The position numbers and the translations under genes were made by a program. From Acidimicrobiia bacterium (lineage in GTDB: Bacteria > Actinomycetota > Acidimicrobiia > Acidimicrobiales > Aldehydirespiratoraceae): DNA of 58,889 nt. The stretch spans positions 1 to 58,889 of the forward strand of contig JAUIML010000003.1 of the NCBI GenBank assembly GCA_030432715.1. Direction: 5' to 3'. This document shows, piece by piece, positions 21,601 through 23,757 of the stretch. The notes under the pieces were generated by a model. The model saw nothing but the letters and a program-made list of their open reading frames with translations. It made no database searches and was not told where the DNA came from. The first letter of the stretch is position 1; the number at the start of each line of letters is the position of its first letter.

Positions 21601-22812
21601 TCAGGCGAGACAGTCGACGGGTTCGCGCAGGGCGAGGTCGGCGTAGACCCGGCGGAGGCGGGCCGCCATGGTGGTCCACGTGTAGCTGACGGCGGCCTCG
21701 GCCGCCTGTCGCGAGAGTTCGTCGGCCAGCAACGGCGAGTCGAGAATGCGTCGGGTGGCGGCCGCGAAGTCGCGGGGGTCACGGCCGCTGATCCGGAATC
21801 CGGTACGCCCCTCTTCGACCAGGGTGCGGAGCCCGCCGACGTCGGAGGCGACGACCGGCGTGCCGCAGGCCGCCGCTTCGAGGGCGACGAGGCCGAACGA
21901 CTCGCTCCGGGAGGGCACGAGGCACACGTCGGCGGCGCGGTAGTAGGTGGACAGCACGTGGTGCGGCTGGGGCGGCACCATCGACACGCGGTCGACGAGG
22001 CCGCGATCGGCGATGAGCTTCTCGATCTTGCGGACCTCGTCGTCGCCCTCGATCCCGCTCGACCCGCCGACGATCAGGAGGCGCGCATCGTCGATGTCGA
22101 GCGCGGCGAGCGCCTCGACCGCGACGTCGACCCCCTTCAGCGGCTGGATGCGGCCGACGAAGAGCAGGAGAGGCGACGCATCGAGCCCCAACGCCGCTCG
22201 GGCACCGTCGCGAGCGCCGGGCGAGAAGAAGGCGTGGTCGACCCCGGGCGGCACGACCTCGACCCGGTCGGCATCGGCCCCGTAGTGGGTGACGAGTTCG
22301 TGGAGCTCGGTGACCGAGTTGGCGGTGATCACGTCGGCGCAGCGGATCACCTCGGCCTCGGCATCGATGCGACGCTGCGGCTCGTCGTCGCCCGTCTCGG
22401 CCTTGACCCGGGCCAGCGTGTGGAACGTTGTGACCAGCGGCAGATCGAGCTGGTGCTTCAACCGGTGGCCCGCCACACCCGAGAGCCAGTAGTTGGCGTG
22501 GATGACGTCGACGGGACGCTCGACGAGATCACGCCCGACGGCCTCGGTGAACTCATCGACGATGTCGGGCAATGCCTCCTTGGCGAGCCCGACGGGACCG
22601 GCGTCGACGTGGACGACCCGGAACCCGGGCTCGACCTCGACCACGTCGGGGAGATCGTCGTCCCAACGACGCACGTAGACGGTCGCATCGGTGCCGCCCT
22701 GAGCCAACGACGACACGAGCTCGCGGATGTAGACGTTCATCCCTCCCGCGTCGCCGTGCCCGGGCTGGACCAGGGGCGACGTGTGCAAGGACAGAACGGC
22801 GACGCGGCTCAC
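21601..22812 (-). CDS. mshA: D-inositol-3-phosphate glycosyltransferase (mycothiol synthesis)
   Basis: 403 residues from the GTG at 22812 (VSRVAVLSLHTSPLVQPG), with GGGACAGG just upstream; an ATG at 22845 would add 11 residues. GT4/GT-B fold. The N-terminal HTSPLVQPGHGDAGGMNVYIREL is characteristic of MshA, which transfers GlcNAc from UDP-GlcNAc to inositol-3-phosphate, the first step of mycothiol, the actinobacterial thiol. The UDP site includes LLFVGRIQPLKGVDVAVEAL and VPSRSESFGLVALEAAACGTPVVAS. Followed by the YbjN gene. Its presence supports an actinobacterial host. Confidence 0.88.
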   Translation of the reverse strand: MSRVAVLSLHTSPLVQPGHGDAGGMNVYIRELVSSLAQGGTDATVYVRRWDDDLPDVVEVEPGFRVVHVDAGPVGLAKEALPDIVDEFTEAVGRDLVERPVDVIHANYWLSGVAGHRLKHQLDLPLVTTFHTLARVKAETGDDEPQRRIDAEAEVIRCADVITANSVTELHELVTHYGADADRVEVVPPGVDHAFFSPGARDGARAALGLDASPLLLFVGRIQPLKGVDVAVEALAALDIDDARLLIVGGSSGIEGDDEVRKIEKLIADRGLVDRVSMVPPQPHHVLSTYYRAADVCLVPSRSESFGLVALEAAACGTPVVASDVGGLRTLVEEGRTGFRISGRDPRDFAAATRRILDSPLLADELSRQAAEAAVSYTWTTMAARLRRVYADLALREPVDCLA

Positions 22813-22894
22813 GACCTGTCCCAACGCACGGGGCCGACCAGACATTCCGTGACCCTGCGGGCGGGCGACCGGCCGGCGAGCGCAGGGTCGCCGA

Positions 22895-23422
22895 TCACGA
22901 GGGGGAGGTGGACGCTTCTCCGCCGGCGATCCGACGGGCGAGCTCGTCGTTGAGCGAGTCGATGGTGTCGTGGAGCGAGCGGCGACTCGTCGACAGTCGC
23001 TCCTCGAAATCGCGCAGGGCGATGACGGCCGCGGACAGCTCGTCGTCACCCAGATCGGCCACCTCGGTCATGATGGACGGCCCGACCACGTCGTCGAGCA
23101 CCGCGGTGAGCGGATCCACCACGGCTTCGGGCGGATCGAGCTCCTGGTCGACACGCCCCGATCCCGGCGCCCGGACCCCATCGCTCAACAGCTCGGGCAG
23201 GCGGGCCACCAGGTCGGCCAGGTCGCCGCCGCCGCCCTCGGTGCGGCGCTTGGTCTCGGCCACGATCACGTCGAGGCGTCCCTGCGCCAGCCGGCGCACA
23301 TAGGAGACCCCGTTCTCGAGGTCGGTGCACTCCGAACGCATCCTGCGGAGATCATCGGTTGCGGACTCGGCGAGCCCGGCCAGGTAGCCGGCCTCCAGCA
23401 CTCGTTGGAGATCTGGGATCAT
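22895..23422 (-). CDS. RsiG-like (AmfC family) coiled-coil protein with two c-di-GMP-type motifs
   Basis: 175 residues, ATG at 23422; upstream extension in the ORF track is not needed. Mostly helical. Residues ~35-50 read ENGVSYVRRLAQGRLD, an exact E-x3-S-x2-R-x3-Q-x3-D, the c-di-GMP-binding signature of Streptomyces RsiG, the anti-sigma factor of WhiG. Near the C-terminus EERLSTSRRSLHDTID gives E-x3-S-x2-R-x3-H-x3-D, the same motif with His for Gln. Streptomyces RsiG has two such motifs in an antiparallel hairpin, matching this layout. It probably binds c-di-GMP and a sigma factor; no WhiG-type gene lies in the window. Between moaD and mshA. Confidence 0.8.
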   Translation of the reverse strand: MIPDLQRVLEAGYLAGLAESATDDLRRMRSECTDLENGVSYVRRLAQGRLDVIVAETKRRTEGGGGDLADLVARLPELLSDGVRAPGSGRVDQELDPPEAVVDPLTAVLDDVVGPSIMTEVADLGDDELSAAVIALRDFEERLSTSRRSLHDTIDSLNDELARRIAGGEASTSPS

Positions 23423-23496: not shown

Positions 23497-23757
23497 CTAC
23501 CTGCCGCGGACCGCCGCGCCGGATCCGCCCGAGACCGGAGGCAACACGGCGACCTCGTCGCGGTCGCCGACCGGGTGGTCGCGCCCGACGGCCTCGCCGT
23601 TGCACCACACCGCGGCCGTCTCGAGAATGCCCGCGAAATCGGATCCGTAGCGAGCCACCGCGGCGTCGAGCACCTCGCCCACGGTGGCACCGGGAACGGT
23701 GTCGTGCTTCGTGCCGGCGGCCTCGCGGGCCGAGGCGAACAAGCGGAGCTGGGCCAT
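23497..23757 (-). CDS. MoaD/ThiS-family sulfur carrier (molybdopterin synthase small subunit-like)
   Basis: 86 residues, ATG at 23757. Ubiquitin-like fold: LRLFASAREAAGTKHDTVPGATVGEVLDAAVARYG, then VWCNGEAVGRDHPVGDRDEVAVLPPVSGG, which is the usual MoaD ending. In MoaD the Gly-Gly must be the very C-terminus to be adenylated and thiocarboxylated. Here eight more residues (SGAAVRGR) follow, so the tail would need trimming, or the protein acts differently. No other molybdenum-cofactor gene is in the window. Confidence 0.82.
   Translation of the reverse strand: MAQLRLFASAREAAGTKHDTVPGATVGEVLDAAVARYGSDFAGILETAAVWCNGEAVGRDHPVGDRDEVAVLPPVSGGSGAAVRGR

What the first reader, a model, noticed from the sequence alone, without database searches (positions are those of the whole stretch)
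22895..23422. RsiG-like protein with two c-di-GMP motifs, the second with His for Gln
One exact and one Q-to-H copy of E-x3-S-x2-R-x3-Q-x3-D lie on two helices, as in Streptomyces RsiG, which with c-di-GMP holds sigma factor WhiG. Finding it outside the sporulating streptomycetes, next to mshA and in a genome with a large polysaccharide locus, suggests c-di-GMP control of a motility/development-type sigma factor here.
Basis: partly seen in the sequence, partly recalled or inferred. Interest (0 to 1): 0.7.

Follow-up and report, generated by a model that had tools for sequence, protein, structure and literature searches.

The report
Twin-motif RsiG anti-sigma in Acidimicrobiales
The gene encodes an ordinary, order-wide version of RsiG, a protein thought to use the signal molecule c-di-GMP to hold the sigma factor WhiG inactive; its partner WhiG is in the same genome, and the histidine that looked odd is the normal residue at that position in this group of bacteria.

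Summary
Window 22895-23422 (-) encodes a 175-aa RsiG: Pfam RsiG E 1.4e-24 (two stretches), best PDB sequence hit S. venezuelae RsiG, and RsiG crystal chains as the only significant fold hits. Motif 1 is exact; motif 2 has His for Gln. The genome encodes a WhiG orthologue (E 9.6e-93 to S. venezuelae WhiG) with all three c-di-GMP-contact residues, plus 20 GGDEF domains. Among 61 genomes, all 35 with WhiG also have RsiG.

It is not new in kind. Twin-motif RsiG was reported in Acidimicrobiales in 2021 (PMC8325347), where Gln-to-His was judged compatible with binding and a His-bearing RsiG was shown to bind c-di-GMP. Added here: in this order the second motif carries His (34 of 39) or Phe (5), never Gln. 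The mshA-like neighbour is conserved gene order with no regulatory hint. FliF, PilM and PilB were not found in this genome, so motility control is unsupported here. But six pilus-bearing relatives in four genera share a WhiG-type element (cTCA-N15-GCCGAT) at pilB, and a similar conserved element precedes an HTH gene that this genome has. The switch's targets in this genome remain unknown.

The parts
22895..23422 (-). rsiG, 175-aa twin-motif RsiG (stop codon included)
   Evidence: PF22802 E 1.4e-24, two stretches; phmmer to 6pfj_T E 1.5e-12; Foldseek to 6pfv/6pfj RsiG chains only
23270..23317 (-). c-di-GMP motif 1, residues 36-51, ENGVSYVRRLAQGRLD
   Evidence: all five key residues invariant in 12 relatives; on predicted helix 22-61
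22958..23005 (-). c-di-GMP motif 2, residues 140-155, EERLSTSRRSLHDTID, His151 in place of Gln (codon 22970-22972)
   Evidence: all five key residues invariant in 12 relatives; His in 34 and Phe in 5 of 39 RsiGs of the order; on predicted helix 126-166
23497..23757 (-). upstream neighbour, ThiS/MoaD-family protein
   Evidence: PF02597 E 4.2e-14; the order is kept in relatives. Neighbour only, not part of the switch
21601..22845 (-). downstream neighbour, MshA-like glycosyltransferase
   Evidence: TIGR03449 E 1.1e-116 but 390 bits against a cut-off of 462.5. Neighbour only, not part of the switch

Best explanation
This is the Acidimicrobiales twin-motif RsiG. As a monomer it folds its two motif helices into an antiparallel coiled coil. 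At high c-di-GMP it binds a c-di-GMP dimer, with Gln47 (motif 1) and His151 (motif 2) stacking on guanines, and the armed form holds the WhiG sigma factor encoded elsewhere in the genome (G000:C148:2280-3053). When c-di-GMP falls, WhiG is released and reads promoters of about the form TMAR-N15-GCCGAT. Shown here: family membership, fold match, motif conservation, a WhiG with its contact residues, GGDEF proteins, and RsiG/WhiG co-occurrence. Inferred from the Streptomyces and Rubrobacter work: nucleotide binding, sequestration of WhiG and direction of control. The regulon in this genome is unknown; one candidate is an HTH gene on contig C169. Type IV pili are a likely target only in relatives that have them.
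For: PF22802 E 1.4e-24; S. venezuelae RsiG E 1.5e-12; Foldseek E 1.1e-4, probability 1.00, only RsiG chains significant. WhiG orthologue E 9.6e-93 with K57/G61/R62 conserved as K36/G40/R41, above the NCBIfam WhiG cut-off. 20 GGDEF matches. All 35 WhiG-positive genomes of 61 are RsiG-positive; Fisher 7e-13, not corrected for kinship. All ten key motif residues invariant in 12 relatives down to 53% identity. In G008, with no FliA/WhiG-type sigma match, rsiG is broken.
Against: No binding or interaction data for this protein. Four RsiG-positive genomes have no WhiG found (G005, G008, G012, G028), and G028 keeps both motifs intact; draft gaps could explain some. The complex was not modelled. The loop between the helices is low-confidence in the model.
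Confidence: 0.88

Rival explanations
1. The Gln-to-His change marks a degenerating or altered second site, so that the protein binds c-di-GMP through one motif only, or binds another ligand.
For: Gln at this position is well conserved in motif 2 of the published set; here it is never Gln.
Against: His151 is invariant in 12 relatives together with the other four key residues of motif 2, and His or Phe occupies the place across the order. The His-bearing RsiG of C. woesei binds c-di-GMP, 25 uM alone and 1.7 uM with WhiG, and not c-di-AMP. The 2021 authors judge His suitable for the stacking.
Confidence: 0.05
2. The true partner is the second FliA-type sigma factor (contig C193), not the WhiG orthologue.
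For: It is present in many RsiG-positive genomes, including G005, G012 and G028, where WhiG was not found.
Against: Its residues at the three c-di-GMP contact positions are R, F, Q instead of K, G, R. Its co-occurrence with RsiG is weaker: 32 of 39, and 6 of 22 RsiG-negative genomes have it.
Confidence: 0.05
3. The switch controls motility (flagella or type IV pili) in this organism.
For: Type IV pilus control is proposed for Rubrobacter. Six pilus-bearing family relatives have a conserved WhiG-type element at pilB. 14 of 15 PilM-positive genomes have RsiG, Fisher 0.006.
Against: This genome has no FliF, PilM or PilB match. Same-genus genomes G002 and G003 (93 and 99% complete) also lack them while keeping RsiG and WhiG. 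At 82.9% completeness absence is not proof.
Confidence: 0.1

Closest known systems
RsiG of Streptomyces venezuelae (PDB 6PFJ, 6PFV), twin-motif monomer
   Same: Same Pfam family, length (175 against 176 aa), two motifs on two long helices, best sequence and fold match
   Different: About 30% identity in the fold alignment; motif 2 has His instead of Gln; the organism is not known to sporulate, so the regulon must be a different one
RsiG of Rubrobacter radiotolerans (PDB 7LQ2-7LQ4) and Conexibacter woesei, single-motif homodimers
   Same: Same motif; the C. woesei protein carries His at the Gln position and binds c-di-GMP
   Different: Those are short single-motif proteins that dimerise; this one has both motifs in one chain
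Twin-motif RsiGs reported in 3 of 4 Acidimicrobiales (PMC8325347)
   Same: Same order (inferred here from relatives) and same twin-motif form
   Different: The main text of that paper does not describe the motif-2 residue or the regulon of that group; this is a further species

Membership tests
RsiG (PF22802) | Sequence similarity above the curated cut-off | tested here: met
   86 bits against a cut-off of 27, two stretches
RsiG (PF22802) | E-x3-S-x2-R-x3-[Q/H]-x3-D on each of two long helices | tested here: met
   Motifs at residues 36-51 and 140-155; helices 22-61 and 126-166 in the model. The [Q/H] form is that used by the 2021 authors
RsiG (PF22802) | RsiG fold | tested here: met
   Only S. 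venezuelae RsiG chains at E <= 0.001; TM 0.62-0.65 by query length
RsiG (PF22802) | Cognate WhiG sigma factor with the c-di-GMP-contact residues in the same genome | tested here: met
   C148 WhiG with K36, G40, R41
RsiG (PF22802) | c-di-GMP binding and c-di-GMP-dependent sequestration of WhiG | not testable with these tools
   Needs purified proteins
Rubrobacter-type switch controlling type IV pili | Type IV pilus genes with WhiG-type promoters in the genome | tested here: not met
   No PilM or PilB match in this genome, 82.9% complete; the feature is present in six family relatives

The most novel reading that the evidence does not exclude
In Acidimicrobiales the twin-motif RsiG-WhiG switch governs type IV pilus assembly through a conserved WhiG promoter at pilB, and lineages without pili, such as this genome, keep the switch for another regulon that includes an HTH regulator. 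The pilus role would then not be limited to the single-motif Rubrobacter form.
Probability: 0.4. Interest if true: 0.5.

Novelty: new member of a known kind. Interest (0 to 1): 0.3.

Why it matters
RsiG-WhiG was described in 2021 as the only sigma/anti-sigma pair known to be targeted by c-di-GMP. These results place an intact-looking copy across an order of non-streptomycete actinobacteria, show that its second stacking residue there is His or Phe, and give a concrete, testable promoter prediction (pilB) for what the twin-motif form controls outside sporulating bacteria.

Tried and rejected
Strict flagellar promoter scan (TAAA-N15-GCCGATAA, up to 2 mismatches) in this genome: 22 sites against 19 in the control, so uninformative; with 1 mismatch over 61 genomes no overall excess either. 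A relaxed TMAR-N15-GCCGAT scan in the genus gave more sites than its control, but the reversed control holds TAG, rare inside genes, and is not a fair one, so I drew nothing from the counts; the sites of this genome were not listed. Pilin upstream regions showed no shared WhiG-type element. No such element at a gene start was found in the window. A first pattern search of the genome found nothing and served only to get its size. My first pass at reading motifs missed loci on the minus strand and was redone. NCBIfam has no model that matches RsiG.

Full report
Observation. The ORF lies at 23422..22895 on the minus strand, 175 aa, with a start shared by the aligned relatives. Motif 1 is exact; motif 2 has His for Gln, aligned with the Gln of S. 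venezuelae RsiG. 200,000 shuffles of the protein never gave two such motifs.

What it is. Pfam RsiG (PF22802) matches at E 1.4e-24 with two stretches. The best PDB sequence match is S. venezuelae RsiG, E 1.5e-12, followed by the Rubrobacter RsiG chains. An AlphaFold2 model from 12 sequences (mean pLDDT 78, pTM 0.71) puts the motifs on helices 22-61 and 126-166. The only Foldseek PDB hits with E at or below 0.001 are four S. venezuelae RsiG chains. The window is one contig of a draft genome of 3.68 Mb, 310 contigs, 82.9% complete. The nearest named relatives of the protein are metagenome assemblies labelled Acidimicrobiales, 80-83% identical; the order assignment is inferred from these.

The His. 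Among 39 twin-motif RsiGs of the order, motif 1 carries Gln in 37 and His in one, and in the broken G008 copy that stretch does not align. Motif 2 carries His in 34 and Phe in 5, never Gln (Phe in G042, G045, G047, G054, G059). The published logos of 130 twin-motif RsiGs describe the reverse: His frequent in motif 1, with motif 2 well conserved. The 2021 authors consider His suitable for the same stacking, and RsiG of Conexibacter woesei, which has His, binds c-di-GMP at 25 uM alone and 1.7 uM with WhiG. The His is therefore a feature of the clade and most likely functional.

The partner. The genome has a WhiG orthologue on contig C148: E 9.6e-93 to S. venezuelae WhiG and above the NCBIfam WhiG equivalog cut-off. 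The three sigma residues that touch c-di-GMP in the crystal structure (K57, G61, R62) are present as K36, G40, R41. The gene follows xerC-like and precedes M23-peptidase-like and rpsB-like genes (names by reading the translations). A second FliA-type sigma on C193 has R, F, Q at those positions. There are 20 GGDEF matches; ten of the proteins were read and carry GGDEF-type motifs, several also an EAL-type motif.

Co-occurrence. Among this genome and 60 relatives, 39 have RsiG and 35 have a WhiG orthologue at 55% identity or more. All 35 have RsiG, four have RsiG only, and 22 have neither (Fisher 7e-13, not corrected for kinship). In G008, which has no FliA/WhiG-type match at E 1e-20, rsiG is split between frames and motif 2 has lost its Arg, as expected if the anti-sigma decays once its target is gone. 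G028 is a counter-case: no WhiG found, both motifs intact.

Neighbourhood. ThiS/MoaD, rsiG, an MshA-like glycosyltransferase, a YbjN protein and proC form an order kept, wholly or in large part, in the relatives examined. The glycosyltransferase scores below the MshA equivalog cut-off. Nothing in this order points to the regulon.

What it controls. FliF, PilM and PilB were not found in this genome, nor in two same-genus genomes at 93 and 99% completeness. In six family relatives from four genera that have this pilB, the stretch just before its ATG carries cTCA-N15-gGCCGAT at the same place: 3 of 4 columns of the -35 and 6 of 6 of the -10 are identical, against 1 of 15 spacer columns and 1 of 41 upstream columns. 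That is the form of a FliA/WhiG promoter. One of the six, G014, has WhiG as its only FliA-type match at E 1e-20, which favours WhiG as the sigma that reads it. Upstream of an HTH_31 gene (it also has a hydrophobic stretch by reading) that follows a dpm1-like gene, CCGA of the -10 is identical in 13 genomes and GCCGA in 11, while the following bases up to the start codon vary. In this genome it reads TCAGATTCCGACGCTGAATGCCGAT (C169:5371-5395). The -35 part overlaps the end of the upstream gene, so its conservation says little. For this gene WhiG and the second sigma cannot be told apart, since G028, with no WhiG found, keeps the site.

Relation to the literature. RsiG in Acidimicrobiales and the type IV pilus role in Rubrobacter were published in 2021. 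A 2026 paper adds that the phosphodiesterase RmdB binds WhiG and keeps RsiG off it in Streptomyces. A search for papers holding both RsiG and Acidimicrobi- found no work on RsiG in this order beyond the 2021 paper. The additions here are the order-wide motif-2 residue, the close pairing with WhiG, and the pilB promoter footprint.

Noticed in passing
G052:C7, 115.7 kb (L177, L178), an order relative without RsiG: A contig of many small genes, with by reading a portal-like protein carrying an intein-like insert and nucleotide-metabolism genes, looks like a phage. It holds at least 12 FliA/WhiG-type promoters (TAAAG...GCCGATAA), several a few bases before gene starts, as if the phage used a sigma-28-type sigma factor.
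   Followed up: partly
L045:1471-1758 (G003:C4): A 95-aa single-motif RsiG (EREVSRQRRMLHGRID; PF22802 E 8e-18) between pgsA-like and FHA/MerR-like genes, in a genome that also has a twin-motif RsiG. Single-motif forms were published only from Rubrobacteria and Thermoleophilia; the contig could be a contaminant (genome contamination 5%).
   Followed up: partly
L241 (G008:C43): rsiG remnant split between frames, with motif 2 Arg changed to Cys, in a genome with no FliA/WhiG-type sigma match.
   Followed up: yes
G000:C97:12358-12384 (L022): TCAACTCTGCGGTCGGCGGGCCGATGA lies 26 bases before a methyltransferase-like gene of 414 aa (by reading), a further possible WhiG-type promoter in this genome; seen in one genome only.
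   Followed up: no
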